Source: a virus. Taken from it: 57,368 nt of DNA. The stretch lies in IMG/VR virus record IMGVR_UViG_3300032560_001015, positions 1 to 57,368 of that record. One strand, written 5' to 3'. Position numbers and translations under genes: made by a program. Each line of letters begins with the position of its first letter. Position 1 is the first letter of the stretch. Under the pieces are notes generated by a model. The model had not been told where the DNA came from and made no database searches. It worked only from the letters and a program-made list of their open reading frames with translations. This document shows positions 8,731 to 55,360 of the stretch, one piece after another.

Positions 8731-10652
<1,922 letters not shown>

Positions 10653-10768: not shown

Positions 10769-11200
10769 CTACTCTAAATGATTATCCATCCATACTTTAA
10801 AGTCATTCCATTCCTCTTTAAGCATATCTCGTTTCCAAATATTATATTTCTTTGGAACAATTTTAAGATTGTCTATAGTAGACGGACCGTTGTGTTTTTG
10901 CGGAATCACATGGTCTGGACTAGGTAAGAATATATCATCACTAGTTACTCTATTCTTACCGCGGCCATAACAAAACTTAAAACCATTATGATAATCAGGA
11001 CTAATATTGTACAACTCTTCCGGAGTTGCATCGTACTCCGGTTGCATACTCCAGTAGATACATTGTACCATTTTAAGATCCATTTTACCTGTAATTACCT
11101 TAAACCAAATATCTTTATTAAGATAAGTTGCTTCATCCATATCCGGATATGGATTATTTTCTACTTCAATAATCTTTTGGTTAATTAGTTCTACATCCAT
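10769..11200 (-). CDS. HNH-family endonuclease-like protein
   Basis: A 143-residue protein. The C-terminal half has SPDHVIPQKHNGPSTIDNLKIVPKKYNIWK, which fits the HNH pattern (D-H-x-I/V-P, an Asn-Leu motif, then Asn), and a CYGRGKN loop ahead of it. Such proteins are usually free-standing homing nucleases in T4-like phages. The start ATG overlaps the stop of the 432-aa gene upstream (ATGTAG), so the two are translationally coupled, which hints at a working pair rather than a recent insertion. Target unknown. Confidence 0.6.
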   Translation of the reverse strand: MDVELINQKIIEVENNPYPDMDEATYLNKDIWFKVITGKMDLKMVQCIYWSMQPEYDATPEELYNISPDYHNGFKFCYGRGKNRVTSDDIFLPSPDHVIPQKHNGPSTIDNLKIVPKKYNIWKRDMLKEEWNDFKVWMDNHLE

Positions 11201-12489
11201 TTTTTGTATCCTTCTGTGAATGATAACAATACTTTGTATGTCTCACCTTTTTCTGTTTTAGGCACAGTAAGTTTATATTTGGTACTGTAAGAATCATATA
11301 CGTGATATGTAGCGTGTGCAACTTTTACCTCAGGTGCAATACCACTTGGGTTACTTAAAGTATTAAACGCTTCCTTATACCAATTGTTAATTGCTTGCTT
11401 ACATTGGTCGTGATATGTACCAGAATTTTGACCTTTGTTTACATTACCAAAACGTTTTCCAATTATCTCAGCTAGATCCTCTAGTTTAGGATTTAGGATT
11501 GAATTATTTGGACCTTGGTAGTCTACATCTAACCACTCGGGTTCTTGTTGTTTCAATAACTCGCATAGTCCAACTAAGTTTGCTGACTTCATTGGATCAT
11601 TTGGGTAAACTTTAACTAGCACTGCTGCCGCAGCGTCCATTACGTCAAATCCCATGCGTGCAGATTTATACAAATCTGCCATGTGGCTAATACCTCTTGC
11701 ACCGTTAGCTACAGGATCCCCTACACGACAAATATTAACAGCCCAACGTTGAGCCCATTGTGCGATATCCCACATAAACTTATCTTCACGGATCGGTGGA
11801 CGATCAGCCTGGATATAAGCATCACAACGTTCTTTACGGTTGCGATAGTTATCGTATGCTTCTGACGGTAGGTTATCTACATTACAAGCACAGAACTGAT
11901 CAATGTCTACGTTTTCATCGTCACTGATGCGATATTGTACAGACATATATCTAATACCAAAAATCATACAAGCAATAGTACGGTGTTGGGCATCATTGAT
12001 AAACAGTCGTTTTAAATCTTTAGTCATGCGCCCAATGCCATTAAACACACTCCATGGATCAAATTTAAAAACAATCTGAACAATGTGACGTGCATATAAT
12101 GTACGCTGTGAACGATAGTTAATCCATAACTTTTCTACAGCGTGGCGTTCAACGCCTTCCATTGGCATGATATTCATCAAAGGAATATCAATACCCCATA
12201 ATGCTTTAGTATCTTCTAAGTGCTCTAACAAATCATAAAATGTTTGTAGAAGTTGCTGTTTGCCCCCACGCATATTAGCAAGGAATAGTTTTTCGTCAAC
12301 TAATTCAAGTCTGCTTTCTACTTCTGTTTGACTAATTTGGTCATATGGTCGTCGTTGGGATACTGGTCCAAGTATTTGGTCCAAATCTTTACCAAAACGT
12401 TGAGCAATTACTTCTGGGTATCCTTGATTAGGATATTTTGGGTCAGGGTTAGCAGCCAAGTGATTAACCCAAGATGTTGCTTGTGACAT
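11191..12489 (-). CDS. DGQHR/ParB-like domain protein, function unknown
   Basis: A 432-residue soluble protein. Around residue 160-180 it carries KRLFINDAQHRTIACMIFGI, resembling the DGQHR motif of DndB/ParB-like proteins that bind or process DNA, here with ND in place of DG. The remainder is helical without recognised catalytic motifs. It has its own near-consensus sigma70 promoter 68 bases upstream and an AAAGGAG site, suggesting early expression, and it overlaps a downstream HNH gene. A role in DNA binding or modification sensing is inference; confidence in the family is low, but the gene itself is certain. Confidence 0.45.
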   Translation of the reverse strand: MSQATSWVNHLAANPDPKYPNQGYPEVIAQRFGKDLDQILGPVSQRRPYDQISQTEVESRLELVDEKLFLANMRGGKQQLLQTFYDLLEHLEDTKALWGIDIPLMNIMPMEGVERHAVEKLWINYRSQRTLYARHIVQIVFKFDPWSVFNGIGRMTKDLKRLFINDAQHRTIACMIFGIRYMSVQYRISDDENVDIDQFCACNVDNLPSEAYDNYRNRKERCDAYIQADRPPIREDKFMWDIAQWAQRWAVNICRVGDPVANGARGISHMADLYKSARMGFDVMDAAAAVLVKVYPNDPMKSANLVGLCELLKQQEPEWLDVDYQGPNNSILNPKLEDLAEIIGKRFGNVNKGQNSGTYHDQCKQAINNWYKEAFNTLSNPSGIAPEVKVAHATYHVYDSYSTKYKLTVPKTEKGETYKVLLSFTEGYKKWM

Positions 12490-12556: not shown

Positions 12557-12585
12557 ATTATAGTATCATTTGGTATTGTTGTCAA
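12557..12585 (-). promoter_or_regulatory. sigma70-type promoter
   Basis: TTGACA (12585-12580), 17-base spacer, TATAAT (12562-12557), a perfect consensus match, driving the 432-aa gene that starts at 12489. Confidence 0.85.
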
Positions 12586-12603: not shown

Positions 12604-12623
12604 AAACCCGCCGAAGCGGGTTT
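12604..12623 (-). terminator. tmRNA 3' hairpin / probable terminator
   Basis: A perfect 8-bp stem AAACCCGC / GCGGGTTT with a CGAA loop lies about 50 bases past the tag stop codon. The T tract after it on the minus strand is short (TTT), so it may act with RNA processing rather than alone. Confidence 0.55.
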
Positions 12624-12629
12624 GGTTAT

Positions 12630-12938
12630 TTTGGGTAACAAGGCATAACTGCCCCGTGGTTGCTGTTTCTTAGGCAGCTACTGCTTCTGTACCACGAGCA
12701 AAGCGGAAACCGCGGCCCATAGATACTTTTACAGTACCAAGTGTAGATGCTTTTGCATTTACGGATTTTGCTTGATTTACAGTCATCGCCTACTGTGTTG
12801 TCCACTTGCCTACTAAGCCGTCAATCGATACCATGGCACCCCCAACGAAAAACTCTCTTTCAAAAATGCTTTGGTGGAGGCGACGGGAGTCGAACCCGTG
12901 TCTTGTCCGTTTTTGGACTCGCTTCATACAACAATTCT
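12630..12938 (-). ncRNA. ssrA: circularly permuted (two-piece) tmRNA
   Basis: Reading the minus strand, the acceptor part comes first: a T arm (ACGGG-TTCGACT-CCCGT), the strand CGCCTCC, then ACCA ending at 12872. A 28-base intervening loop follows. Then comes GGGGGTG at 12843, which pairs with CGCCTCC over all 7 positions (two G-U). Next are a TATCGATTGACGG block and the tag frame ending in TAA at 12670. This 3'-part-first order is the hallmark of permuted tmRNA genes of alphaproteobacteria, cyanobacteria and some betaproteobacteria. The tag frame ends ...GTEAVAA, the typical AA-type Clp degron. It is unusually long and basic: about 28-33 residues if translation resumes at the Ala codon near 12771 or 12756. 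Mature ends are approximate. The job would be rescue of stalled ribosomes and tagging for ClpP-type proteases. Confidence 0.8.
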
Positions 12939-14132: not shown

Positions 14133-14444
14133 TCAGGCAGCTTCTGTTTCAGTGATACCAGCACGAGCCTTGATTGCTTCTAGGCTAGGCTTAGTAACTT
14201 TAACAGTGCCAAGACCTGCATACTTTTCATCTGCCGCGTCAATTGCTGCTGCAAATTTACTGTAAAGGTCTGTGGTTTTCAAGTAGTTTACAGCGTCTAA
14301 CTTAGACATAGCTGTTGGTAACTCGATAAGGTTAATGTCTGTGTGACCATCTTTGTTTAAGATTTTAACACGGCTAACTAGATCATTAGCAAAACGAACC
14401 TTGGTCTTACCATTTAACGTTGAAATACCTGTTACTTTAAACAT
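14133..14444 (-). CDS. hypothetical protein
   Basis: A 103-residue protein beginning MFKVTGISTLNGKTKVRFAND, a small beta start followed by helices and an Ala/Glu-rich end (ITETEAA). No family recognised. Its ATG overlaps the stop of the 68-aa gene upstream, and a strong terminator follows, so this is the last gene of a short early unit. Confidence 0.6.
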   Translation of the reverse strand: MFKVTGISTLNGKTKVRFANDLVSRVKILNKDGHTDINLIELPTAMSKLDAVNYLKTTDLYSKFAAAIDAADEKYAGLGTVKVTKPSLEAIKARAGITETEAA

Positions 14445-15650: not shown

Positions 15651-16823
15651 TTATAAGTCTTTGATTTTTTGTAGATAGCCAACTACATTTTCCATGTAAT
15701 TTAGGGCATTTTTTTGAGATGAAAGTACAGACAACAGTTCTGGACTATTTCTACGTATTAATTCAATTTGAATACTACTATCCATTAGTTGGTGTTTGAG
15801 ATCTTCTAAGGGCAGTCTGGCCACTAACTTAAACATATTCATATCTCTGAACGGAGTCCAAGTTAATGTTTTTCCTAAATGCCAGTGTTGCCAGTCATTG
15901 GCATTGTATTCGCAACACTGTTTTATAGCTTCGGCTAGTGTTGCAGATTGTGCGGGTGTGTTGGATAATTTTTCTATGTAACTACGTTTAAAAAAATCAT
16001 AATTAAGACTATTTTTAAATCTTTCCTCAGACATTACTTTGACAAATGAAGAGCCGTGGGCCTGCAATAGCTGATCAACTGTTACAGGATTTCTGGCAGT
16101 AAATTCATCACCAGGAGCTCCGCTGGCCAACACACAATTTTCTGCCCAATAGTGAATTTGGTTATATGCCCAAAATCTACTCAAATGCCCGTGATTTTTA
16201 AGATAAAAATAATCGTGTTCTATATACCCATTTGTAACTATATGGTAGTCGTCAGTGTAGTTTTTTATATATGAAAACAGCAGAGCGGTATCCACGCCAC
16301 CACTTAAAAATACACGCAAAGGCAGTCTATTGTATTCAATAAACTGTTGAACTTTTGATTTCAGTATAAGGTCAATTTGATCAACTGCCTGATCAAATGA
16401 CACAGGCGAATCGTCAATTGAGCCAATTGGGTCAAATGCAGTATGGATTAATTCTAGGTTATTGGTAAGACCAACTATTCCATCAGTGTACTGCAACTTG
16501 CCTATTTCTCTCAGATTTGTTAATCCAAGATCATAGTCATACCAAATTGGAAAACTTCTGAGATTATCAGTTCTTATCAGCAGGCCACTGTCAGTGACTT
16601 TGATAATACAAAAATTGCCGCTATGGGTGGGAGATATTTCTTCACTGATTCTTACAGCAAAATGACTTAGATCTGCGTTGTCTAAATATCCCTTGTACCA
16701 TACAAGATCACCGTGGTAGTCTTGTACCTGTGTCCACCCATCATCTAAATTTATAACAAAATGATCAGTTTGATAGTTATGTTTAAAATTAGTCTGTGCA
16801 GTTTTGCTAATGTGAAAAAACAT
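15651..16823 (-). CDS. asparagine synthase-like PP-loop protein
   Basis: A 390-residue protein. Residues 1-140 look like a decayed N-terminal glutamine-amidotransferase half. The first residue after Met is Phe, not the catalytic Cys, so ammonia release from glutamine is not expected. The second half has the ATP-pyrophosphatase loop LSGGVDTALL (S174-T179), used to adenylate a carboxylate, and continues with an asparagine-synthase-like helical domain. It may amidate or ligate a small substrate. It overlaps the clpP stop/start by one base, so the two are co-transcribed. Which molecule it acts on cannot be read from the sequence. Confidence 0.65.
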   Translation of the reverse strand: MFFHISKTAQTNFKHNYQTDHFVINLDDGWTQVQDYHGDLVWYKGYLDNADLSHFAVRISEEISPTHSGNFCIIKVTDSGLLIRTDNLRSFPIWYDYDLGLTNLREIGKLQYTDGIVGLTNNLELIHTAFDPIGSIDDSPVSFDQAVDQIDLILKSKVQQFIEYNRLPLRVFLSGGVDTALLFSYIKNYTDDYHIVTNGYIEHDYFYLKNHGHLSRFWAYNQIHYWAENCVLASGAPGDEFTARNPVTVDQLLQAHGSSFVKVMSEERFKNSLNYDFFKRSYIEKLSNTPAQSATLAEAIKQCCEYNANDWQHWHLGKTLTWTPFRDMNMFKLVARLPLEDLKHQLMDSSIQIELIRRNSPELLSVLSSQKNALNYMENVVGYLQKIKDL

Positions 16824-17443
16824 TATCTTTTTGTAATCACCTCGTCAGCAAGCCCATAGGCCACTGCTTCTTCTGCTGATAAGAATGTATCAAACTTCAT
16901 AGTGTCAAACAATTCTTCGTAGGTCTTACCTTGCGTATTATGTTTGACATAGAGTTCAGTTAGACGTTTGTTAATGCGCACACTTTCTTCAAAACTACGT
17001 TTAGCATCTTCAAACTGTAGATCTTGTACGTGTACACTACCACGTGTGCCAGGAGTACCTGAACTAACACGATGGATCATTGTACGTGCTTCTGGTAAGA
17101 CAAAACGCTTGCCTGGATGACCTGCTTGAGCAAGGAAACTACCCATACTACATGCCTGCCCAAGAACAATAGTACGCACATCTGGACGGATAAACTGCAT
17201 AGTATCATAGATAGCCAAGCCAGCAGTTACACTGCCACCTGGACTGTTGATATAGAATAAGATGTCTGCTTCTGAATTTTCTGCTTCTAGGTATAACATC
17301 TGTGCTACGATTGAACTGGCTGTATGTTCATTAACATCAGTATCTAACATCACGATACGATCTTTAAGTAGACGTGAATAAATGTCATAGGCACGTTCGC
17401 CTTGACTTGTACGTTCTACTACCATTGGGACTAAATTTGACAT
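16823..17443 (-). CDS. clpP: ClpP protease subunit
   Basis: A 206-residue serine protease that assembles as a tetradecameric chamber fed by Clp ATPases. The catalytic triad is visible: Ser99 in [10 protein letters not shown], His124 in TMIHRVS, and Asp180 in ELFDTMKFD. The [11 protein letters not shown] handle-strand region is near residue 66-75. Normal length with a very short propeptide. No Clp ATPase is in the window, so it probably works with the host's ClpX or ClpA. It lies beside a TraR/DksA gene and an asparagine-synthase-like gene, and on the same genome as ClpS and a tmRNA that supplies AA-ending tags. Confidence 0.96.
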
Positions 17444-30870: not shown

Positions 30871-32008
30871 CCGTTATGACATTTCGTTTAATTAACTCTT
30901 TGAAGTCTTCCATGTTGTCTGCCTTTGGTGCGCAATACCCGCAGAAGCATATAGATTTTGCACACTTGACCACAGGCATAGATTTAGTTTCAAATTGCTC
31001 TTTAAGATTATTGATTAGTGCTGAGCTATTGCTCAAGTTGCCAATTGGTTCTACTTTGCCAGTGAATGACATCTTACAATCTTTATTAAAATAGACCTTG
31101 CCAGTGGTCTGTTGAACAAATAAGAAGAACCAATTTACACTACAGTTCCAGCCAAAGAATCCCTGTTTAGGCACAAATACCACAGCTGATTTCAAGTCTT
31201 TGTTTAAGGACATTTTCCTACCACCACAACATGCACGACCTTCACAGATGCTTACAACATCGCTGGTATCTGTTGCTATATCATTTAATTGTTCTATAGC
31301 TGGTTGATTATTTTTTGAATTGGTATTAGAAATCCAAAATGTTTTAAACTTTGAATATTGATCAGCGGTGTATGCTAGTTCTGGATTATCAAATGGTTTG
31401 GGTATACATCTAATATCGTGTTGCTTACAAAATTCCACAGCTTCAGATGATTTAATCCATAACTCAGGTACGGTGTGCATCATTACCACACATTTTACAC
31501 GCTTGTTATTGTTCTTTAATTCTAATAGATTTTCAAAGAATATCTTTTCTTGTTTAGGAAGATTTTCTGCATGATAGCTGACTGTAAATTCATCTATTAG
31601 ATCTATTACTTTGCTCCAGATACTTTGTTTAACAATAGCATTGGTAGTGGTGGTAATAGTTAATTCCCATTGGCTGGAATACTTTTTATATTTTTCTCTG
31701 CAGGCAGTGAGAATATCAATGATGTCTGGATGATACAAACTTTCGCCGCCATAGACGTTTAATACTACCTTACGTTGAGTGGGCTTTTTATTGGCCATGT
31801 ATAGGCTAACGTACTCATACATAAAGTCAATAGTTTGTAAACATTCATCTAGCGGAGGATGAGGTAACGAGTTATCGTGCCCTCCTTCTTCACCTATTTC
31901 GCAATAGCTGCAATCCAAATTGCACTTTTTGGTTAGTTCCCAATCTAATAGAAAGGCTGGTATATTATTGGGATCTAGAGCGATCCCAATTGATTTAATT
32001 TCTTCCAT
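30851..32008 (-). CDS. radical SAM enzyme with extra cysteines
   Basis: A 385-residue protein. The cluster motif CNLDCSYC (C29-x3-C33-x2-C36) opens a SAM radical core, with the GGES-like NVYGGESLYHP near residue 88. Additional cysteines appear as CEGRACCGGRK near residue 255 and CAKSICFCGYC near residue 350, fitting a SPASM-like second cluster region, as in enzymes that modify peptides. No candidate precursor peptide is directly adjacent. It overlaps the cyclase gene by one base, so the peptidase, SAM enzyme, cyclase and lipoprotein are one operon. Confidence 0.78.
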   Translation of the reverse strand: MEEIKSIGIALDPNNIPAFLLDWELTKKCNLDCSYCEIGEEGGHDNSLPHPPLDECLQTIDFMYEYVSLYMANKKPTQRKVVLNVYGGESLYHPDIIDILTACREKYKKYSSQWELTITTTTNAIVKQSIWSKVIDLIDEFTVSYHAENLPKQEKIFFENLLELKNNNKRVKCVVMMHTVPELWIKSSEAVEFCKQHDIRCIPKPFDNPELAYTADQYSKFKTFWISNTNSKNNQPAIEQLNDIATDTSDVVSICEGRACCGGRKMSLNKDLKSAVVFVPKQGFFGWNCSVNWFFLFVQQTTGKVYFNKDCKMSFTGKVEPIGNLSNSSALINNLKEQFETKSMPVVKCAKSICFCGYCAPKADNMEDFKELIKRNVITDVINYE

Positions 32009-34032
32009 TATTTGCTCGTAGCGTGATAAGTGCCGTCCCAGTTAGCTGGAACTCCCTCTTCAAGACGCTCAATCATCTTGTGATAGTATTCTTTAATTTC
32101 TACAGTTGGATCAGCTTCTAGTTCACGTGCCCATTTAAGTGCGGCAACCCAATTGCCACGTAGATATTCTTTCTTATATTCTTCGTGTTTGTATGCGACT
32201 GTATGACCCACAGCATAGATATCTAAGCCGATGGTTTTGCCTTTAACAGCAATGTTGTCTAACCATACCACAGGGAAGTCATCTTTACAATACTCAGCAG
32301 TCTTAGGTCCAATGATTAGTAATACACCATAGGCCTTAGTTTGTCCTTCTAAACGTGCCGCAGTGCTGACACTATCACCTAAGACATCATAGCCAAACTT
32401 ACTTTTAGCACCAATGTTACCAATTAAAGTTTCACCTGTGTTAACACCAGCACCCATGCCCACTGGTGGACGACCTTTGGCTGTTAGTTCCTTGTTGAAA
32501 TCAGCAATGGCATCAATCATTTCTAGTGCTGTACGTACCGCAGTCTTGGCATGGTTAGCATCATCCAATGGAGCACCATGAACGTGCAGGCTGGCATCAC
32601 CAATGAACTTGATCAGTGTACCGTCATTCTTAAGCACAGGAATACTCAGTGCTGTCATGTAGTCGTTCATGATCTGTGTAAGTCCTTCTACATCATCACC
32701 AAACGATTCGCCTAGGGTAGTAAACCCACGCAGGTCTGTCATGACAATTGATAGTTCTTTACGCTCACCACCTAGTTTGATCAGCTCTGGATTCTTTTGC
32801 AAGCGTTCTACTATAGTAGGATTAACATAGCTGCCAAACTGTTTCTTGATCTGTTGTTTCTGTAAGAATTCACTAACAAACTTAACACCATAAGCGTGTA
32901 GCATAACAAGAACTACACCTGCTGTAGGCACAATAGCATCTATTAAGAACTTGTAGTGCGCAAACACATACATGCTTGCTGGAATTAAACTAGCAGTTAA
33001 TACAACACCTACACCTAGGCCAACATATACCCAACGTGATAATATTAGGATAATAAGTGAGATAACTACAAGTGCTAATAGTTCAGCACCAGGAGCCCAA
33101 TCAGGACGTTCAATATTTACATTGTTAGCCAGCGTAGCAACTACAGCGGCCTGCATGTCTTGTGGCCAAACACTGCCTTTTGATGTTGCTACTGGATTAC
33201 CAATACCTGCGGCACTGGTACCTACAATAACAATACCTTTCTTAAAGTCTTTAGGTAGGTTAACTGCTGATACAGGAATACTCTGTTGACTCCAGTCTAC
33301 CCAGATACGACCTAGGCTGTCTGTACTAATAGGACGGAAGCTAGGCACACGCATTTTCTCAACGCCATTCTCATTTAGCTTAACTTGGAATGTGTCATCA
33401 TTACTAATAACACGCAGTACTTCTAAAGGAACGCTGGGATATAAGCCACCATTATAGCCCACAAACAATGGCAAGCGACGATTAACACCATCAATCTCTG
33501 GCATAGTGTTAGCAATACCAACACCAATGGCATTATTTTCTAATTCTGGAATGTTGGCAATAATGCCTGGATAGTTAATGATAGTATCTAAATAGTCTGC
33601 ACCAATTACAGCACTACCTGGTTTGCGTGGAATATTCTTGCTGGTCTGTGCGGGCATGTTAGTAAGAATAACATTAGCCTGTGTTCTTAACACTGTGGCT
33701 AGTGTTGCATCGCCACCTTGGCGATCCTTTTCTGGCATTAATACGTCCCAAACAACTAGGCCAGCATTGTGGGCGTATATTTGATCAATTAGATTAGCAT
33801 AGATGTCACGCTTAAATGGCCATTGACCATAACGGTCTATGGTAGCTTCATCTATGTTTACAGTATAGATATTATTTTGAGTAGGCTTCTGATTGGTAAT
33901 AAGTGTGTCAAAGTATCGGAGCCTAACACTTTCTACAAATGTAGGTCCTTGAAACACTACAGCTACAATAAGAGCTAGAGTAATGAGAGCAGTCCATGGA
34001 CTGACTAAGATTTTCTTAAGTTTGTTTTTCAT
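32008..34032 (-). CDS. CHASE2-domain membrane adenylyl cyclase
   Basis: A 674-residue membrane protein. One N-terminal helix (14-33), an extracytoplasmic CHASE2-type sensor (about 35-305), three helices (about 315-385) and a C-terminal class III cyclase (425-610). The catalytic domain has metal Asp433 (TDLRGFT) and Asp479 (KFIGDASLHVHGAP), Lys475 and Asp549 that select adenine, and Arg560. The usual transition-state Asn is Ser556 in GDSVSTAARLEG, so activity may be reduced or regulated differently. It would make cAMP when its sensor is occupied. Ends 1 base into the radical SAM gene and starts in the lipoprotein stop. A membrane cyclase is very uncommon in phage. Confidence 0.9.
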   Translation of the reverse strand: MKNKLKKILVSPWTALITLALIVAVVFQGPTFVESVRLRYFDTLITNQKPTQNNIYTVNIDEATIDRYGQWPFKRDIYANLIDQIYAHNAGLVVWDVLMPEKDRQGGDATLATVLRTQANVILTNMPAQTSKNIPRKPGSAVIGADYLDTIINYPGIIANIPELENNAIGVGIANTMPEIDGVNRRLPLFVGYNGGLYPSVPLEVLRVISNDDTFQVKLNENGVEKMRVPSFRPISTDSLGRIWVDWSQQSIPVSAVNLPKDFKKGIVIVGTSAAGIGNPVATSKGSVWPQDMQAAVVATLANNVNIERPDWAPGAELLALVVISLIILILSRWVYVGLGVGVVLTASLIPASMYVFAHYKFLIDAIVPTAGVVLVMLHAYGVKFVSEFLQKQQIKKQFGSYVNPTIVERLQKNPELIKLGGERKELSIVMTDLRGFTTLGESFGDDVEGLTQIMNDYMTALSIPVLKNDGTLIKFIGDASLHVHGAPLDDANHAKTAVRTALEMIDAIADFNKELTAKGRPPVGMGAGVNTGETLIGNIGAKSKFGYDVLGDSVSTAARLEGQTKAYGVLLIIGPKTAEYCKDDFPVVWLDNIAVKGKTIGLDIYAVGHTVAYKHEEYKKEYLRGNWVAALKWARELEADPTVEIKEYYHKMIERLEEGVPANWDGTYHATSK

Positions 34033-45258: not shown

Positions 45259-46734
45259 TTACGGTCCTTGACGTACAGTCACAGTACCGCAGCCTCCTGC
45301 TTGTACGCAGGTTTGACTTATACCATAACTTTGTCCGCCTGTTTGTGTTAGATTTACACTAGCGGGGCCACCAGCATTGGTTAGGTTGATGGTTGCTGTG
45401 TTGGCTGTATTGCCTGACTGATTTACTGTAGCAGTGTTACCATCTCCATTTAGATTAACATCTAGAAAATGCTGCCCAAGTCCAGTTTGACTAATTGTTT
45501 CTGTATTTTGATTGCCTGAGACTGCGGTGAATAACTGTTTAGGTGAGTTACCAGTTTGTATTAGACCTATGTTATTCTGATTGCCTGTGACATTGATGCT
45601 GGCATAGTTGCCTACGTTATTATTAACTGTGGCCTGCTGTTGAACGTTAACTGAATTGTTAACTCCACTAACATATATGCTACTATAATGATATCCAGAG
45701 TCTGTGCCACTACCGTTACCGTTTGCGTCTGTGCCTTGATTAACTGTTAGACTATTGCTTCCCCCTAGTAGGTCTGCGGCTATGACGTTATGTGTGCTTA
45801 ATGTATTAGTAGGGTCGCCCTGATGTATAGTAACTGTGTTATTGCCGCCACGAACTTTCATAGCAGTTTGATCTTGTCCACCTATTAGGTTAGACTGATT
45901 GTTTACTGTGATATTAATATGATCACCACTGCCAATTTGATCTATATAGACGTGGCTGGGTGTGGGCAAGTTGACCTGCTGATTACGAGAAATGTTCATT
46001 GATGTTTGTTCAGCATTGGTAATACCACTGCCCCCACCCACAGTAGTTGTGCTTAATAGTACTGCACTGCCATTGTTAACCACAGTCTGAGAGCCATCAC
46101 TATAGGTTGTAGTGGTAATAGGTTGACTGTAGGTATAGACCGTCGCTCCACTTGTAGCTGTTGTGGTAATTGTTGAGTTTACTCTGCTGGTTATAGTAAC
46201 AGCAGGTGGCGCCGACTGTCCTGCCGCTAAGGGAGTAGTGTTAGGCGGAGTATAATTAGTCATGTAGGTATTACTAGGATAACTCTGTGTGATAGTCCAA
46301 GATCCACCTTGCCCATAACTATATCCCTGTGCTGTAGTGAACAATGTACCCCAACTGCCATTACCATTATAGAATATAGCACCATCTGCCAGAGCCACAA
46401 AGGTCCCTGTGTAGTCCAACACACGAACTAGATTATTGTTAGTGTCATATACTCCAAGTCCAAAGGTTCCAGGATTAGTTGAGCTATGAAAAAAAGCCAA
46501 ATAATCACCAGCTGATGCATAGGCATTAGTTTGTGTAGATGTTAGTCTGCCCGCTTGTAATTGGCCACTTGCGTTGACACTGGCATACAAATAATTGAAA
46601 CTGCTGGCATATAATTTGCCGTTGCTGGTATACCACTGTACATCAAATACCTGTGCGAAGCTAAAATGTTCTTGGGTAACGTCAGCCCATGCACTAGAAC
46701 ATACAAGTAATAAGATTAACAGTAACTTTTTCAT
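45259..46734 (-). CDS. secreted protein with curlin-type repeats (curlin 3)
   Basis: A 491-residue exported protein (signal peptide MKKLLLILLLVCSSAWA). Residues 20-170 form an unrecognised N-terminal domain with several Tyr/Ser beta strands. From about residue 265 the chain is built of curlin-like repeats: VYIDQIGSGDHINITVNNQ, INVTGNQNNIGLIQTGN, VNLNGDGNTATVNQSG. That is the pattern G-x2-N-x5-Q of amyloid fibre subunits. It ends with a Cys pair (GISQTCVQAGGCGTVTV). It is the last gene of the operon and could cap or anchor the fibre. Overlaps the FecR gene by 4 bases. Confidence 0.75.
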   Translation of the reverse strand: MKKLLLILLLVCSSAWADVTQEHFSFAQVFDVQWYTSNGKLYASSFNYLYASVNASGQLQAGRLTSTQTNAYASAGDYLAFFHSSTNPGTFGLGVYDTNNNLVRVLDYTGTFVALADGAIFYNGNGSWGTLFTTAQGYSYGQGGSWTITQSYPSNTYMTNYTPPNTTPLAAGQSAPPAVTITSRVNSTITTTATSGATVYTYSQPITTTTYSDGSQTVVNNGSAVLLSTTTVGGGSGITNAEQTSMNISRNQQVNLPTPSHVYIDQIGSGDHINITVNNQSNLIGGQDQTAMKVRGGNNTVTIHQGDPTNTLSTHNVIAADLLGGSNSLTVNQGTDANGNGSGTDSGYHYSSIYVSGVNNSVNVQQQATVNNNVGNYASINVTGNQNNIGLIQTGNSPKQLFTAVSGNQNTETISQTGLGQHFLDVNLNGDGNTATVNQSGNTANTATINLTNAGGPASVNLTQTGGQSYGISQTCVQAGGCGTVTVRQGP

Positions 46735-47855
46735 CGTTGTATCACCGTTATAGTACTGCCCGCACCTTGATTGACACGGTTTTTAATAGTAACTGCGCCC
46801 TGTGTTTCTACTAGTAGACTATTTTGATCTTTAGGAGTACTAATACATTGATTGTTACTGCCATCACTACGGCATAAGGTAACTTCACTTGCGCCAATAC
46901 TTTCAGTAACACCTGTAGACTTTTTATAGTCTGGCAGTATGTTATTAGTTTGACTTGGTGCTATCAAGTTAGCTAGTAGTCCAGCTTGTTCTTCTTGTAG
47001 CTGTTGTGCCAAGATGTCAAAAATGTTTTCAAGGAAGTATTGTTCTAATAGTGGGTGTGCCAATGGGTTATCTCCAAAGGGTGTGCCTTCTTTTTCAAAC
47101 TCATTTTTTAAATAATCTTGTTTAAGAAAGTCTACATTTAACATATCAGCAGGATTTTTAGTTGATATGTTTTTAGTTTCTATTCCTTCCTTGCGTAGTT
47201 CTTTGGGCGGACTAACGATCAGCAGGTTGTTAATCGTATCAGGTGACAAGTTTAATACTGTTGGTTTCATTGGCATTGTAGTACGACTGGCTACCTTAGT
47301 GCCTTGAAAGGCTACATTAAGACTAACCATACCAGCATCGTTAATAACGTCAATGGCACCTGTTTTACAATCTCTGTCTATATCTGCCCAACCTTTAGGA
47401 CAACTTGGCAGTAGAATAACAGTACTTTCGCCCATTTCATCTACTGTAGCCGTAAAGTCTGTACCACGCACTGCTATGGTCGCGCTAGGCGTGTTTAGTG
47501 CTACTTTGTTAGGGTTACTGTGCGCAATAGCACCTGATGCGTAACGAACTGTGCCCTGTGTAAACTTCATAGCCAGTTTGCCGGCACTGGGCTTTTTAGG
47601 ATCAAATACAAAATCATCAATGACTAACTTACTACTTTCATTAACTTCTACTTTAGTATCGTCTTGGAATGTAATGCCAATCTTACCTTTAGTAGTCTGT
47701 ACCTTGTCATTCATTTCAATGCCAGCACCTTTCTTACCTTCCATGGCAGTAAAACTACGAGTAATAGTACCAGGCAGGGCTGTTTGTTCTGTGATAGTAC
47801 CCACTGCGGCATTGGCTAGTAAAGGGACAAGTAACAAGATTAGTAGTTGCTTCAT
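46731..47855 (-). CDS. FecR-domain protein in the curli operon
   Basis: A 374-residue exported protein (signal peptide to about residue 16). The FecR core covers KKGAGIEMNDKVQTTKGKIGITFQDDTKVEVNESSKLVIDDF..., RYASGAIAHSNPNKVALNTPSATIAVRGTDF, the usual periplasmic beta module. The C-terminal part has long charged stretches and ends ...GSTITVIQR with curlin-like character. FecR domains often sense or stabilise matrix or iron-linked export. Coupled by 4-base overlaps to curlin 2 and curlin 3, so it is a true operon member. Confidence 0.85.
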   Translation of the reverse strand: MKQLLILLLVPLLANAAVGTITEQTALPGTITRSFTAMEGKKGAGIEMNDKVQTTKGKIGITFQDDTKVEVNESSKLVIDDFVFDPKKPSAGKLAMKFTQGTVRYASGAIAHSNPNKVALNTPSATIAVRGTDFTATVDEMGESTVILLPSCPKGWADIDRDCKTGAIDVINDAGMVSLNVAFQGTKVASRTTMPMKPTVLNLSPDTINNLLIVSPPKELRKEGIETKNISTKNPADMLNVDFLKQDYLKNEFEKEGTPFGDNPLAHPLLEQYFLENIFDILAQQLQEEQAGLLANLIAPSQTNNILPDYKKSTGVTESIGASEVTLCRSDGSNNQCISTPKDQNSLLVETQGAVTIKNRVNQGAGSTITVIQR

Positions 47856-48667
47856 CTTGACATACTCGTTATGTTGATAACATTATTACTGCCAGTGGTT
47901 TTAAGATTTATATTACTATCTGCTACTAGACTACTTTGATTAACAGCAATGGTATTACTATTACCACTAATGTCTAGGTTTGTGCGATGTCCATTTGCAG
48001 CGCCATCTGTTTGATTTACTGTGACTATATTAGCAGTACCATTTAAGTTAGTCTGCGCCGTGCCATTTGTGCCAGATTGTGTTACCGTGACAATATTGTA
48101 ACTACCATTAGCGGCACTGGTAGTCTGTGTATTAGTACTACCGCTTACGCTTGTATTAACTGTTTGGTTAAGTCCTGTAGTTGATACAGTCACTGAGTTA
48201 TGGTCGCCAATAAAACGCCCATTGTATACGGCATTATCACCTATCTGTGACACATCCATGCCATTACTCACTGAAGTATTCTTGCCATCTGCGTTGACAT
48301 CTATAACCGCTTTGGCATTGTTACCATTAATGTTATAACTCCAACTGTTGCCTTGTACAGGTTGTGGGCATGTAGGACAACTAACATTGGTCATCGGACG
48401 TGGCATACTGGAAGTTTCCATGTTCAACTGTAGTTGATCGTTGGAGCCTGTTTGTTGTATGGTTACTACATTACCATTACCATGAATGGTAGCTGTATTT
48501 GTGGGAATAGCAGGGCCGCCTATACCATATAGGCCATTGCCTACTCCATCTTGTAATACGTAAATATCTGAGAATTGACCAGATTGATCAATATATGCTT
48601 GGTTGTCGCCAGCAAAAGAGGGCAGAGTCGTAACAAATAAGACTGCTGCCCATATCCATGCTCGCAT
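47852..48667 (-). CDS. curlin-repeat protein (curlin 2)
   Basis: A 271-residue exported protein (signal peptide to about residue 19; mature start GDNQAYIDQSGQ). Repeats follow the curlin pattern: AYIDQSGQFSDIYVLQDG, ATIHGNGNVVTIQQTG, NIVTVTQSGTN, IVTVNQTDGA, SGNSNTIAVNQSS. Between them a 60-residue insert has CPTCPQP, unusual for curlins. Likely the nucleator or minor fibre subunit. Confidence 0.85.
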   Translation of the reverse strand: MRAWIWAAVLFVTTLPSFAGDNQAYIDQSGQFSDIYVLQDGVGNGLYGIGGPAIPTNTATIHGNGNVVTIQQTGSNDQLQLNMETSSMPRPMTNVSCPTCPQPVQGNSWSYNINGNNAKAVIDVNADGKNTSVSNGMDVSQIGDNAVYNGRFIGDHNSVTVSTTGLNQTVNTSVSGSTNTQTTSAANGSYNIVTVTQSGTNGTAQTNLNGTANIVTVNQTDGAANGHRTNLDISGNSNTIAVNQSSLVADSNINLKTTGSNNVINITSMSR

Positions 48668-48679
48668 TTTACACCCCGC

Positions 48680-49510
48680 TTAGTGAGCGTTGGTGTTGAT
48701 AGTGATTGAGTTACTGCTGCCTACTGAAGTAACATTAACGTTGCTTACACCTGTACTACCTTGCTGTGTAACTGCAACTGTATTGCTACTACCATTGAAA
48801 CTCAATTCAGCATCGTGACCTGTGCCCGTTTGACTAACTGTGTAGGTATTGCTTGCGCCAACACTGGTCAAATTGATAATATTGCTACCACCAGTTTGTG
48901 TTAGTGTTGCTGCGTTGCTACCGCCACCTGTTAGGCTGATACCTTGACTATTTCCACTACCTGTGATTGTTGAAGTAAGTGTATTGCTACTACCACCACT
49001 GGTTAATGCTGTAACGTCGTTGGTGCTACCTGTAATACTTAAAGTAACTCCAGCACTGTTACCGCTTTGATTAATATTAACTAGGTTGCCTGAGCTGGCT
49101 GTTGCTGCACCGCCACTAGGTGTACCTGTAATATTAATAACACCAGTTGAACTGTCACCAGTTACGCTATAATTGAATGTTTTGTTATATGTATTACCAT
49201 TGCGTGTTTCTGATGTAAAGCCACTTGTAGCATTGTTATTGATATTCAATTTTAAGGTATCACTTGTACCAGCTTGATCTACGTTGACAACATTGTTGTT
49301 ACCGTAAATTTTAGCACGATTACCTGTGCCGGCACTGCCGCTGCCTGTACCACCAATATTGTCACTGCCTGTGCTGCCACTACCATCACCTTGTGTTACT
49401 GTGATAGTGTTAGAGTCACCGCTTTGATCAATATAGATGTTGTTGTCAGCATAGGCCACACTTGTAGTAAGTAATAACACTGCGAATAAACTTTTAATGT
49501 AATTTAACAT
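48680..49510 (-). CDS. curlin-repeat protein (curlin 1, major-subunit candidate)
   Basis: A 276-residue exported protein (signal peptide MLNYIKSLFAVLLLTTSVAYA). The mature protein opens NNIYIDQSGDSNTITVTQ, the textbook curlin repeat, and continues with about ten related units (VNVDQAGTSDTLKLNI, LVNINQSGNSAGVTLSI, YTVSQTGTGHDAELSF, VAVTQQGSTGVSNVNV). It lacks cysteine and charged stretches, as an amyloid subunit should. It overlaps csgG by 17 bases, so it is the first fibre gene behind the pore. Confidence 0.88.
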   Translation of the reverse strand: MLNYIKSLFAVLLLTTSVAYADNNIYIDQSGDSNTITVTQGDGSGSTGSDNIGGTGSGSAGTGNRAKIYGNNNVVNVDQAGTSDTLKLNINNNATSGFTSETRNGNTYNKTFNYSVTGDSSTGVINITGTPSGGAATASSGNLVNINQSGNSAGVTLSITGSTNDVTALTSGGSSNTLTSTITGSGNSQGISLTGGGSNAATLTQTGGSNIINLTSVGASNTYTVSQTGTGHDAELSFNGSSNTVAVTQQGSTGVSNVNVTSVGSSNSITINTNAH

Positions 49511-50525
49511 CTATCTGCTCCTTGGACACTTTAGGTCCGTTATCCACCACTGGCATTAGTTTATTAGTTTTCTTTTTTACCTGTGGTTTCTTAGTTTCCT
49601 GTTTTACTTCCACTGGTGCTGTTGGCTCTTCCACCGCCTTGGCCTCAATTGGTTCCTCTTTAGCTATTGGTTGTGTTACCACCGCTGGCTCTGGAGGTTG
49701 TGCTACAGGAGTACTTGGTACTACAGGTAATGCCTGTGGAGCATTAGTTCTATAGTCCCAAATTCCTTTACGTTGACCTTCTTTGATCAACTCTACTACT
49801 GCGGCTTCAATTGTAGTTTTCACCGCTAAACTTGTTGGCTCGTTTATAGTCAAGCCTGTTTCAAATTCAAATGATTGTGTGCCACCTTTAAAGAACTTAA
49901 GCACAGCAATACTATCAGCTGTTGAATAAATTGTTTTACTTTCTGTTACTGTGGCTAGAACTTTACCAGAGTTAACTGATATTGCTCGCAAACTAACTGT
50001 AACTACATCTTTACTGTACTGTGTCTGTGGACCAATGCCCAACCATTTATAAGCTGTACCACCGCTTTCTATACTGCTATCATAACCAATAATACCACCT
50101 TCCATAATAACACCAGCAAACTGTAAGGGCATTAGTGGTTTAGCATTAGTGCCTTCGTAGGCATCGCGCATCTGTTTGATAATAGTACGCTCTTTAACTA
50201 GGTTGTCCACGTTAACACGTTCTACTACATCAAACCATTGTCCGTGTCCTACTTCCTGTAAGGCACGTATTAAAAACGGCTCAGCACCCTGTGTTACCGC
50301 AGTACTAAAACTAGCAATGTTTGGTATATTACGGCGTTGCCCAGTTTGATCTTTAAAACTATACACAGCCACAGTAATAGGCTTGCCCATTGGTGCTGGT
50401 ATAGTATCAAACTCTTTTTGTAGTTTAATACCCACTGTTTCTGGTTTAGACTCATATCCAGCTTTCTGTATAGTGGCACAGCCAGTCAACGATAATATAG
50501 CTAATATTGTTATTATTCTTTTCAT
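49494..50525 (-). CDS. csgG: CsgG-like curli secretion pore lipoprotein
   Basis: A 343-residue outer-membrane lipoprotein. Lipobox LTGC with acylated Cys16, then ITVAVYSFKDQTGQRRNIPNIASFSTAVTQGAEPFLIRALQEVG, GQWFDVVERVNVDNLVKERTII, GVIMEGGIIGYDSSIESGGTAYKWLGIG, VTVSLRAISVNSGKVLATVTESKTIYS, which reproduce the E. coli CsgG order closely. CsgG forms the nonameric channel for unfolded curlin. The extra 65-residue C-terminal tail is Pro/Glu/Lys-rich and not part of the classical pore. It overlaps csgF and curlin 1 with no gap. Confidence 0.94.
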   Translation of the reverse strand: MKRIITILAILSLTGCATIQKAGYESKPETVGIKLQKEFDTIPAPMGKPITVAVYSFKDQTGQRRNIPNIASFSTAVTQGAEPFLIRALQEVGHGQWFDVVERVNVDNLVKERTIIKQMRDAYEGTNAKPLMPLQFAGVIMEGGIIGYDSSIESGGTAYKWLGIGPQTQYSKDVVTVSLRAISVNSGKVLATVTESKTIYSTADSIAVLKFFKGGTQSFEFETGLTINEPTSLAVKTTIEAAVVELIKEGQRKGIWDYRTNAPQALPVVPSTPVAQPPEPAVVTQPIAKEEPIEAKAVEEPTAPVEVKQETKKPQVKKKTNKLMPVVDNGPKVSKEQIDVKLH

Positions 50526-52950: not shown

Positions 52951-53394
52951 CTACTTCTGAAAGGTAATTGCAATCTTTTTTGGCTTTTCGTGTTCAGGAA
53001 CAAACACTTCCAATTTGATTGTTAAGATGCCGTTTTTAACACTAGCACCTTTGACTTCAACGTTGTCTGCAAGAGCAAACGTGCGTGTAAAGTCACGTGC
53101 AGCAATGCCTTGATGTAAGTAGTTGCCCACACGTGTGTCAGTGGCTTTTGATTCACCACGCACAAACAGTTCACCATTTTGCATTTCAACATCTAGTTCG
53201 TCTTCTGCAAAGCCAGCGACTGCTACTTCAATTTCATACTCGTTCTCAGCAACACGAACGATGTTGTATGGTGGATAGTTACTTGAGTTTAATGTACCTG
53301 CTGTACGAGCAAGTTCATCAAACATACGGTCAAAGCCCACAGCAAATCTGTGAATTTGTGGGATATCTAACGAATTTACATATACTTGTTTCAT
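52951..53394 (-). CDS. Hsp20 small heat-shock protein
   Basis: A 147-residue alpha-crystallin-domain chaperone. The core spans PPYNIVRVAENEYEIEVAVAGFAEDELDVEMQNGELFVRG to the TFALADNVEVKGASVKNGILTIKLEVFVPEHEKPKKIAI end, including the A-x-x-x-N-G-I/V-L signature (ASVKNGILTI). It holds unfolding proteins for DnaK. The shared chaperone leader element precedes it and a weak hairpin (52916-52935) follows. Confidence 0.95.
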   Translation of the reverse strand: MKQVYVNSLDIPQIHRFAVGFDRMFDELARTAGTLNSSNYPPYNIVRVAENEYEIEVAVAGFAEDELDVEMQNGELFVRGESKATDTRVGNYLHQGIAARDFTRTFALADNVEVKGASVKNGILTIKLEVFVPEHEKPKKIAITFQK

Positions 53395-53401
53395 AGCTTA
53401 T

Positions 53402-53421
53402 TCTCCTTATATTAAGCAAGA
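53402..53421 (-). promoter_or_regulatory. shared chaperone leader element (hsp20 copy)
   Basis: Minus-strand CTTGCTTAATATAAGGAGAA before hsp20. Nearly the same block precedes groES and dnaK. Confidence 0.5.
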
Positions 53422-53437
53422 TTAATTAAAGGACCCC

Positions 53438-55360
53438 TTAGGCATCCTTTTTAACTTCAGTGAACTCAGCATCTACTACTTCACCTTCTACTGGTTTCTC
53501 TGAATTGGGTTGTGCACCAGGTTGAACTTCAGCTTGTTTAGCTACTTCAGCCTGTTGCATAATATCAAACAATGGTTTAACTGGCTCAGCTAGTGCTGAG
53601 ATAGCTTCCATGATCTTGTCAGCATCTTCTGTAGCTTTGGCTGTTTCAAGATCTTTTAGTGCTGATTCAATTTTTTCTTTCATGCCATCATCTAACTTGT
53701 CACCGTGTTCTTTTAATGCTTTGTTAATACCGTGTACTTGTTCATCAGCACGGTTTTTAGCATCAACTACAGCACGAGCTTTAACGTCAGCATCTTTGTT
53801 AGCTTCAGCTTCTTGAATCATCTTTTCAATTTCTTCTTCAGTTAAGCCTGAGTTAGCTTTGATAGTGATCTTGTTTTCTTTGCCAGTGTTTTTATCTTTG
53901 GCACTTACTTTCAAGATACCGTTAGCATCAATGTCAAGTGTAATTTCAATTGCTGGCACGCCACGTGGAGCAGGAGCAATACCTTCTAGGTTAAATTCAC
54001 CTAGTTTCTTGTTGTCCTTGATAAACTCACGTTCACCTTGTCCAATAGCTACTGTAACTGCTGGTTGGTTGTCTTCTGCTGTTGAGAATGTTTGACTAAC
54101 TTTAGTAGGAATAGTTGTATTCTTTTTAATCAGTTTAGTCATAACACCGCCAACTGTTTCAATACCTAGGCTCAACGGAGTAACGTCTAACAATAACACG
54201 TCTGTTTTATCACCTGCTAGAACAGCACCTTGGATAGCCGCACCAACTGCTACAGCTTCGTCTGGGTTAACGTCTTTGCGTGGATCACGTCCAAAGATCT
54301 CTTTAACTGATTCCTGTACCTTAGGCATGCGTGTTTGGCCACCAACTAAGATAACATCATCAATGTCGCTGGCACTTACACCTGCATCTTTCAATGCTAC
54401 CTTACATGGCTCGCTAGCACGTTTGATCAAATCTTCTACTAGGCCTTCAAACTTAGCACGTGTAATAGTTACGTTTAAGTGTTTAGGACCAGTGGCATCA
54501 GCAGTAACGTACGGTAAGTTTACTGTGGTTTGTTGGCTGCTTGATAGTTCAATTTTAGCTTTTTCTGCTGATTCTTTTAGGCGTTGTAGAGCTAGAACAT
54601 CTTTTGACAGGTCAACGCCTGACTCTTTTAAGAATTCATCAATTAAGTAGTTCATTAGACGTTGGTCAAAGTCTTCACCGCCTAGGAATGTGTCACCATT
54701 GGTAGCTAGTACTTCAAATTGTTTTTCGCCATCAACATCTACAATTTCAATGATTGATACGTCAAATGTACCACCACCTAGATCGTATACAGCAATCTTA
54801 CGATCTTTCTTAGAATCTTTATCCATACCAAACGCTAGTGCAGCCGCTGTTGGCTCATTGATAATACGTAAGACTTCTAGGCCTGCAATAGTACCTGCAT
54901 CTTTAGTTGCTTGACGTTGGCTGTCATTAAAGTAAGCAGGAACAGTAATAACTGCCTGTGTTACTTCATGTCCAAGATAGTCTTCAGCGGTCTTTTTCAT
55001 TTTGCGTAAGACTTCAGCTGAAATCTGTGGTGGTGCTAGTTCTTGATCATCAATCTTAACCCATGCATCACCATTTTTGTTTTTAACAATTTTGTATGGC
55101 ATTAGGTCAATGTCTTTTTGTACTTCTTTTTCGTCAAACTTACGACCAATTAAGCGTTTAGCCGCATAGACTGTTTTCTTTGGATTTGTAACTGCTTGAC
55201 GTTTAGCTGGTGCACCAACTACGATCTCATCGCCGTAGGCAACGATACTAGGTGTAGTACGAGCACCTTCGTTATTTTCAATTACTTTTGGTTTGTTGTT
55301 TTCAAGAATGGCCACACATGAGTTAGTGGTGCCGAGGTCAATACCAATGATCTTAGACAT
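53438..55360 (-). CDS. dnaK: DnaK chaperone (Hsp70)
   Basis: Full-length 640-residue Hsp70. Signatures [33 protein letters not shown] and [15 protein letters not shown] are intact; the linker [13 protein letters not shown] and substrate-binding domain follow, with a helical lid and a bacterial-like tail ending [14 protein letters not shown]. It binds exposed hydrophobic stretches in an ATP-driven cycle with DnaJ and GrpE, which are not in the window. Complete frame, normal bacterial length. Preceded by the chaperone leader element and a micro-ORF. Confidence 0.98.

What the first reader, a model, noticed from the sequence alone, without database searches (positions are those of the whole stretch)
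12630..12938. Permuted tmRNA with an unusually long, basic tag frame
The 3'-part-first order, matching acceptor halves and 28-base loop show a two-piece tmRNA. The tag frame after the resume region runs for roughly 28-33 residues and contains several Arg/Lys before ending EAVAA. Standard tags are 8-15 residues. A long basic tag could add a targeting function beyond degradation.
Basis: partly seen in the sequence, partly recalled or inferred. Interest (0 to 1): 0.75.

Follow-up and report, generated by a model that had tools for sequence, protein, structure and literature searches.

The report
Phage two-piece tmRNA with extended tag
A phage carries its own circularly permuted version of the bacterial ribosome-rescue RNA (tmRNA), and the peptide tag it encodes is about twice the usual length, positively charged, and shared with related phages, so it looks like a real but unexplained variant of a known system.

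Summary
On the minus strand (about 12933-12604) lies a permuted, two-piece tmRNA: Rfam RF04321 112.8 bits, RF01850 98 bits, found also by ARAGORN. The 28-base spacer, 7-bp acceptor with G3·U70 and encoded CCA are present. The tag, AKASTLGTVKVSMGRGFRFARGTEAVAA, is 28 residues, net charge +4; its resume signal scores 14.4 bits against 4.7 for the next candidate. It is not a stand-alone gene.

New here: ARAGORN-invisible homologues L170 and L163 have 29- and 30-residue tags sharing a basic core, while L163 has lost the AVAA end. A second phage family (37 loci, ANK[KR]AL-FAD tags of 22-25 residues) shares a neighbouring ParB/sulfiredoxin-like gene, absent from 96 short-tag viral loci, and, in five members, the D-loop variant. 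In Pseudomonadota long tags are rare: 4 of 136 readable loci.

Best explanation: a working phage tmRNA doing trans-translation with host SmpB, its products degraded by a ClpP protease. A dedicated role for the extension is open; peptide-level selection is only weakly supported. New variant of a known kind.

The parts
12604..12933 (-). permuted tmRNA gene (3' acceptor piece first, then coding piece), from the outer helix strand to the terminator-like hairpin
   Evidence: RF04321 112.8 bits 12933-12670, RF01850 98 bits 12987-12636; ARAGORN 12964-12579; exact mature ends not determined
12883..12899 (-). T-arm, stem ACGGG/CCCGT with loop TTCGACT
   Evidence: 5 of 5 pairs kept in 3 of 3 sequences, 2 with changes on both sides
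12872..12882 (-). acceptor 3' strand CGCCTCC, discriminator A, encoded CCA
12844..12871 (-). 28-base spacer between the two halves, expected to be removed
   Evidence: removal inferred from known two-piece tmRNAs
12818..12843 (-). acceptor 5' strand GGGGGTG (third pair G-U, the alanine identity pair) and D-loop GGTATCGATTGACGG
   Evidence: G-U pair kept in 3 of 3 sequences
12780..12795 (-). stem CAGT/ACTG upstream of the resume codon (pseudoknot 1 region)
   Evidence: alignment; of 4 pairs, 2 are kept in all 3 sequences (one of them compensatory) and 2 are broken in both relatives
12670..12756 (-). tag reading frame, 28 codons plus TAA: AKASTLGTVKVSMGRGFRFARGTEAVAA
   Evidence: resume context CCGTAAATGCA at 12764-12754
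12659..12681 (-). hairpin GTAGCTG...CAGCAAC with the stop codon in its loop
   Evidence: same sequence in window and L170; L163 has a different hairpin there that my alignment does not align well (14 of 18 cells paired)
12604..12623 (-). terminator-like hairpin AAACCCGCTTCGGCGGGTTT; the scan scored it only on the + strand
   Evidence: on the minus strand it has only a short T run, while L170 and L163 have hairpins with TTTTTT at the same place
12557..12585 (-). perfect sigma-70 promoter TTGACA-17-TATAAT, 3' of the tmRNA, facing the ParB/Srx-like gene
   Evidence: 12 of 12 matches; consensus match only
11191..12489 (-). 432-residue ParB/sulfiredoxin-fold protein with INDAQHR (DGQHR-type) motif, conserved neighbour of extended-tag tmRNAs
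   Evidence: predicted fold, mean pLDDT 65.6, best PDB match ParB 7bnk E 4.9e-4
10769..11200 (-). 143-residue HNH-type protein (PHROG 1035 endonuclease VII)
   Evidence: E 3.1e-8 in PHROGs; Pfam HNH below cut-off
16823..17443 (-). phage ClpP-family protease, 206 residues; possible proteolytic partner
   Evidence: PF00574 217 bits; also matches PHROG 94 head maturation protease, 140 bits

Best explanation
It is a phage-encoded, circularly permuted (two-piece) tmRNA that works by ordinary trans-translation. Shown: the tRNA-like half with its alanine identity pair, the permuted order, the resume signal, and a 28-codon tag frame closed by a stop in a hairpin loop. Inferred: the transcript is cut by host RNase P and tRNA 3' processing enzymes into two pieces, is charged with alanine, binds host SmpB (none found in the phage), enters ribosomes stalled on broken mRNA during infection, and adds alanine plus the 28 encoded residues. 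The hydrophobic-Ala-Ala end (AVAA) then sends the product to ClpXP, with host ClpX and either host ClpP or the phage's own ClpP homologue. The 15-20 extra basic residues replace the acidic AND-N start to which the SspB adaptor binds in some hosts (recalled), so degradation would be adaptor-independent, with the extra length serving as an unstructured grip for ClpX. This last point is a guess.
For: Two Rfam models above threshold and ARAGORN. Resume signal 14.4 bits, next 4.7. Two diverged homologues, L170 and L163, with a partly conserved neighbourhood: helices 1-4 (22 pairs) are paired in 66 of 66 cells with 2 compensatory pairs in the T-stem; whole structure 91.7% of cells paired against 29-55% when slid. 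G3-U70 kept in 3 of 3. Terminator-type hairpin at the same place in all three. AVAA is an ordinary ending. A ClpP-family protein is in all 5 records searched, the window's phage (4 records) and L016's contig.
Against: No SmpB in any of 5 records of this clade or of 14 further records, so function depends wholly on the host. L163's tag ends AAVLV, which does not fit a universal ClpX degron. L170 encodes CCT in place of CCA. The phage ClpP may be a head maturation protease. No expression data exist; no promoter was found just upstream.
Confidence: 0.72

Rival explanations
1. The extended basic tag has its own job: it sends rescued chains somewhere other than ClpXP (another protease such as Lon, nucleic acid, the ribosome, or a phage structure), or acts as a bioactive peptide when added to host proteins.
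For: The core KAST[LF]G--KV[SA]M--[GD]FRF is shared by three diverged tags while the degron end is lost in one. The ANK family, 37 loci, keeps an 11-residue basic start (most recruited by that pattern), and three members not recruited by tag sequence give pN/pS 0.24-0.45. Long-tag families are more often basic: 5 of 7 families against 5 of 99 short distinct tags, Fisher p 5e-5, post hoc and with families collapsed by me. Precedent: an extended tag read by Lon in Mycoplasma (title seen in the reference list of PMC3985003).
Against: pN/pS in the window family 0.81-0.93 over the whole tag and 0.55-0.92 over the core, on about 15-23 synonymous sites, not distinguishable from shifted frames. RNA structure constraint can mimic peptide conservation. 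No partner is known.
Confidence: 0.25
2. The frame is a stand-alone small protein (38 residues from the ATG at 12786), and the tmRNA resemblance is residual or decayed.
For: An in-frame ATG precedes the tag; in L170 and L163 the tag frame is open for 86 and 87 codons through the whole RNA.
Against: An upstream open frame of 57 or more codons is found in 9 of 107 viral and 16 of 120 bacterial unique tmRNA genes, so it is unremarkable. In the window the long frame is closed by TAG. Compensatory pairs keep the tRNA-like fold. No similar protein: tblastn of the tag against 50,697 phage records gave no match.
Confidence: 0.02
3. The RNA is an inhibitor or SmpB sponge that blocks host trans-translation, as proposed for the tRNA-like-only tmRNA of phage DS6A.
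For: PMC11915505 and PMC4131195 (passages) report that a DS6A-type molecule inhibits tmRNA; no phage SmpB.
Against: Unlike DS6A the whole coding piece, with resume signal and stop hairpin, is kept in three diverged genomes.
Confidence: 0.05

Closest known systems
Permuted (two-piece) tmRNA, Rfam RF04321 / RF01850 / RF01849
   Same: Permuted order, tRNA-like domain, CCA, resume signal, stop in hairpin; above threshold for RF04321 and RF01850.
   Different: Tag 28 residues and basic instead of 9-15 residues in 118 of 121 bacterial controls, mostly acidic or neutral; D-loop TATCGATTGACG.
Phage-encoded two-piece tmRNAs (for example Methylophilales phage Melnitz, PMC9004378, passages read)
   Same: Complete permuted tmRNA in a large phage. 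That paper counts 53 phage two-piece tmRNAs, 50 from marine or aquatic samples.
   Different: Neither extended tag has a match in 50,697 phage records by tblastn (positive control).
Extended tmRNA tag of Mycoplasma, read by Lon (Ge and Karzai 2009; title seen in a reference list; tag length recalled)
   Same: A much longer tag than usual in a functional tmRNA.
   Different: Mycoplasma tags end AFA and those hosts lack ClpXP (PMC3985003 passage); this one ends AVAA and the phage carries a ClpP.
Permuted tmRNAs of Brevundimonas jumbo phages (found here)
   Same: Same D-loop motif GTATCGATTGACG and a closely similar T-arm region.
   Different: Tag A[HS]NDNFAAGERVLLAA, 16 residues; T-loop TGCGA with A18.

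Membership tests
permuted two-piece tmRNA (RF04321) | 3' acceptor piece precedes 5' coding piece, joined by a spacer | tested here: met
permuted two-piece tmRNA (RF04321) | 7-bp acceptor with G3-U70 and CCA end | tested here: met
   (7 pairs, 100% of cells); the relative L170 has CCT
permuted two-piece tmRNA (RF04321) | score above the curated threshold | tested here: met
   112.8 against 47 bits
permuted two-piece tmRNA (RF04321) | resume signal and in-frame tag ending in hydrophobic-Ala-Ala | tested here: met
   not met in relative L163, which ends VLV
permuted two-piece tmRNA (RF04321) | transcript processed to two pieces, alanylated, SmpB-dependent | not testable with these tools
   needs experiment; no SmpB in 5 records of the clade
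beta-type subfamily (RF01850) | matches the clade model best | tested here: inconclusive
   window 98 bits beta, but homologues L163 and L170 pass only the alpha model and have the T-loop commonest in the bacterial sample
Lon-directed extended tag (Mycoplasma type) | ends AFA, host without ClpXP | tested here: not met
   ends AVAA; the phage carries ClpP; host unknown
stand-alone small protein gene | protein-level conservation without RNA structure | tested here: not met

The most novel reading that the evidence does not exclude
Several lineages of large phages carry a distinct class of extended-tag tmRNA in which the long basic peptide, not the ClpX degron, is the conserved part, and which travels with a ParB/sulfiredoxin-fold protein (and, in the genomes looked at, an HNH-type or similarly placed small protein); the phage reprogrammes ribosome rescue so that rescued chains get a phage-specific fate.
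Probability: 0.22. Interest if true: 0.78.

Novelty: new variant of a known kind. Interest (0 to 1): 0.5.

Why it matters
Why phages carry their own tmRNA is unanswered; proposals in print (PMC9004378, passages) are upkeep of the hijacked translation machinery or selective degradation of host proteins. Phage tmRNAs whose tags differ sharply from the bacterial norm, yet recur in related genomes, make the question testable: replace the tag and see what the phage loses. If the extension directs rescued chains anywhere but ClpXP, it would be a viral rewrite of bacterial quality control. ARAGORN misses two of the three members of the window family, so the class is probably undercounted.

Tried and rejected
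1) Origin of the extension from a phage gene: tblastn and blastn of the tag and RNA against the window gave only chance-level hits (best non-self tblastn E 0.18; 'LGTVKV' also in the 14133-14444 protein, E 1.8). Rejected.

2) Stand-alone protein: open upstream frames are common in tmRNA genes. Rejected.

3) Unusual T-loop in L170 and L163 as a sign of decay: GGC[GA]G with A18 is the commonest form in the bacterial sample, 60 of 67 distinct sequences. Rejected.

4) Internal resume codon giving a 9-residue tag ARGTEAVAA: the best internal in-frame candidates score 4.7 or less against 14.4, and that GCT is not among the best three. Rejected.

5) Purifying selection on the window-family peptide: not shown. 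In the ANK family the low ratio for codons 1-11 (0.14) is biased, because 31 of the 37 loci came in only through a pattern of that peptide; codons 12-22 give 0.51 against 0.58 in frame 1 and 2.69 in frame 2.

6) Common descent of the window and ANK tags: ungapped residues 1-14, shuffle p 0.004; p 0.02 with offsets allowed. Suggestive only.

7) Phage excess of long tags: 8 of 46 distinct tags in the viral loci not recruited by tag sequence (L001-L133), 3 of 63 bacterial, Fisher p 0.05.

8) L064's 33-residue tag resembles cyanobacterial tags (recalled); its resume codon scores -1.2 by my matrix, so its length is uncertain. It is one of the 5 basic long families in the Fisher test above.

Full report
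What was checked. Rfam's merged model RF04321 scores 112.8 bits over its full length and the beta-type model RF01850 98 bits; ARAGORN calls the gene 12964-12579. The order is T-arm, acceptor 3' strand, CCA (12872), 28-base spacer, acceptor 5' strand (12843), D-loop, upstream stem, resume context, tag, stop hairpin, terminator-like hairpin.

The tag. The frame 12756-12670 encodes AKASTLGTVKVSMGRGFRFARGTEAVAA, 28 residues, net charge +4. Because a wrong resume codon would make a normal tag look long, I built a weight matrix from 134 distinct contexts (-12 to +3) of short-tag genes. It gives 14.4 bits to the first GCA (training median 13.0, 5th percentile 8.0); the next candidate in the window has 4.7. 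The length is therefore secure by homology, though not by experiment.

The genome. The window is a 57,368-base IMG/VR record. Three other contigs (149,159, 95,183 and 41,529 bases) carry the same tmRNA; the first two are 100% identical to the window over 57,368 and 57,340 bases, and the third is identical over the 431 bases round the tmRNA. They are treated as one phage, not as independent evidence. The window has 28 tRNA genes, GroEL, GroES, Hsp70, Hsp20, ClpP and a CHASE2-cyclase. No SmpB was found in its four records or in L016's (0 of 5), nor in 14 other records of tmRNA-bearing phages, long-tag and Brevundimonas ones among them (0 of 14).

Homologues. The D-loop pattern brought in L170 and L163, which ARAGORN misses but RF04321 accepts at 106.3 and 101.6 bits. 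They have GroES/GroEL and several flanking genes in common with the window. Their tags are AKASTLGTVKVAMNKGFRFGSRASEAVAA (29) and ATKASTFGVAKVSMGRDFRFGSAKKAAVLV (30). With the window they keep helices 1-4 of the tRNA-like domain in 66 of 66 cells, two T-stem pairs having changed on both sides; the upstream stem and the stop hairpin are less well kept (66.7% and 77.8% of cells). L163's last residues, AAVLV, are not a standard degron. L170 has CCT for CCA. A fourth relative, L016's 17,200-base contig, has the neighbour genes but no tmRNA.

A wider class. Among 181 viral loci examined, 147 have an ARAGORN permuted tmRNA, with 61 distinct tags, 22 of them 18 residues or more; 48 of the 181 loci were recruited by tag or D-loop patterns, so these are not frequencies. 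The largest extended family, ANK[KR]AL[GR]FAD..., was read in 37 loci, 22-25 residues; 31 of the 37 came in only through the tag pattern, the other six through earlier tRNA-domain patterns. Five of the 37, and the window's phage, carry the exact D-loop motif TGGTATCGATTGACG with the spacer pattern. The tag pattern was absent from 398 of 398 Pseudomonadota genomes, and tblastn with the tag gave no match in 50,697 phage records (a 20-residue positive control found seven Brevundimonas phages).

Bacterial control. RF04321 over 398 genomes gave 157 with a match over the cut-off. I took the 137 best listed matches (96.7 bits and up) and left the weaker ones. ARAGORN read 121, with 63 distinct tags, most often 12 residues; of the other 16, 15 were read by hand, one with a 22-residue tag, and one (L217) was not resolved. 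Long tags: 4 of 136 readable loci, two of them basic (+8 and +6). So a long basic tag is rare in bacteria but not unheard of.

Neighbour. The gene after the window tmRNA encodes a ParB/sulfiredoxin-fold protein (AlphaFold mean pLDDT 65.6, pTM 0.63; Foldseek best ParB E 4.9e-4, low TM; viral matches include ParB/Sulfiredoxin phage proteins). An HMM built from six members hits 8 of 8 window-like loci (3 distinct genomes), 24 of 37 ANK loci (22 of 35 without the two used in the HMM), 0 of 96 short-tag loci and 0 of 12 other long-tag loci. In ANK loci it lies within about 5 kb of the tmRNA, on either strand. Sequence near the tmRNA is comparable: median 5,310 bases within 5 kb for short-tag loci, 6,382 for ANK. 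This probably reflects shared phage ancestry rather than function.

Selection. Nei-Gojobori counts do not show peptide-level selection in the window family (whole tag pS 0.19-0.36, pN 0.18-0.31). The ANK members not recruited by tag sequence (L009, L032, L157) give pN/pS 0.24-0.45, which is suggestive on few sites.

Interpretation. The best-supported reading is an active phage tmRNA working with host SmpB, whose tag still ends in AVAA and so is probably a ClpXP degron. The extension is real, shared within the clade and paralleled in another phage family, but its purpose is not shown. The literature consulted was seen as passages (PMC11915505, PMC9004378, PMC3985003, PMC4131195, PMC11242549); PMC11915505 reports a most frequent tag length of 10 and 79 phage tmRNA sequences. 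In eight paper searches I noticed no description of these extended phage tags; the library lacks most subscription journals.

Noticed in passing
L153-L156 (Brevundimonas phages Kabachok, Kikimora, Gurke, Bambus), about 1477-1822 in each: A permuted tmRNA not annotated in the records and missed by ARAGORN (RF04321 57-58 bits), tag A[HS]NDNFAAGERVLLAA; tblastn finds the tag in three further Brevundimonas jumbo phages.
   Followed up: partly
tmRNA D-loop and T-loop across viral and bacterial loci: Tertiary positions 18 and 55 covary in permuted tmRNAs: A18/G55 in 82, G18/U55 in 52, G18/G55 in 4 and A18/U55 in 0 of 138 distinct sequences with G19 and C56; 13 others with a different D-loop letter at 19 were left out. 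The window has G/U while its near homologues L170 and L163 have A/G, so T-arm and D-loop changed together.
   Followed up: partly
window 11191-12489 and 10769-11200, minus strand: ParB/sulfiredoxin-fold protein plus HNH-type protein beside extended-tag phage tmRNAs; function unknown, no PADLOC match.
   Followed up: partly
L170 1294-2055 and L163 5930-6682: An endonuclease-like ORF (GIY-YIG by eye, not tested) ends inside the 5' edge of the tmRNA, directly upstream of it.
   Followed up: no
window 32008-34032, 8731-10652, 16823-17443, 52951-55360: The phage carries a CHASE2-cyclase and a large set of protein-quality genes: GroEL, GroES, ClpP, Hsp20, Hsp70.
   Followed up: no
window 45259-50525: Neighbouring ORFs rich in N/Q/G/S repeats that look like curlin-type amyloid subunits, next to a possible CsgG-like ORF (49494-50525); by eye only.
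   Followed up: no
L284, L232, L285, L321 (bacterial genomes G375, G083, G367, G363): Long bacterial tags that look like duplicated tags (a second ANDN or ANRN inside), two of them strongly basic and in genomes of 1.2 and 1.4 Mb.
   Followed up: partly
L159, L161, L165, L166, L171, L172, L173: Viral permuted tmRNAs with spacers of 83-134 bases between the halves, all missed by ARAGORN.
   Followed up: no
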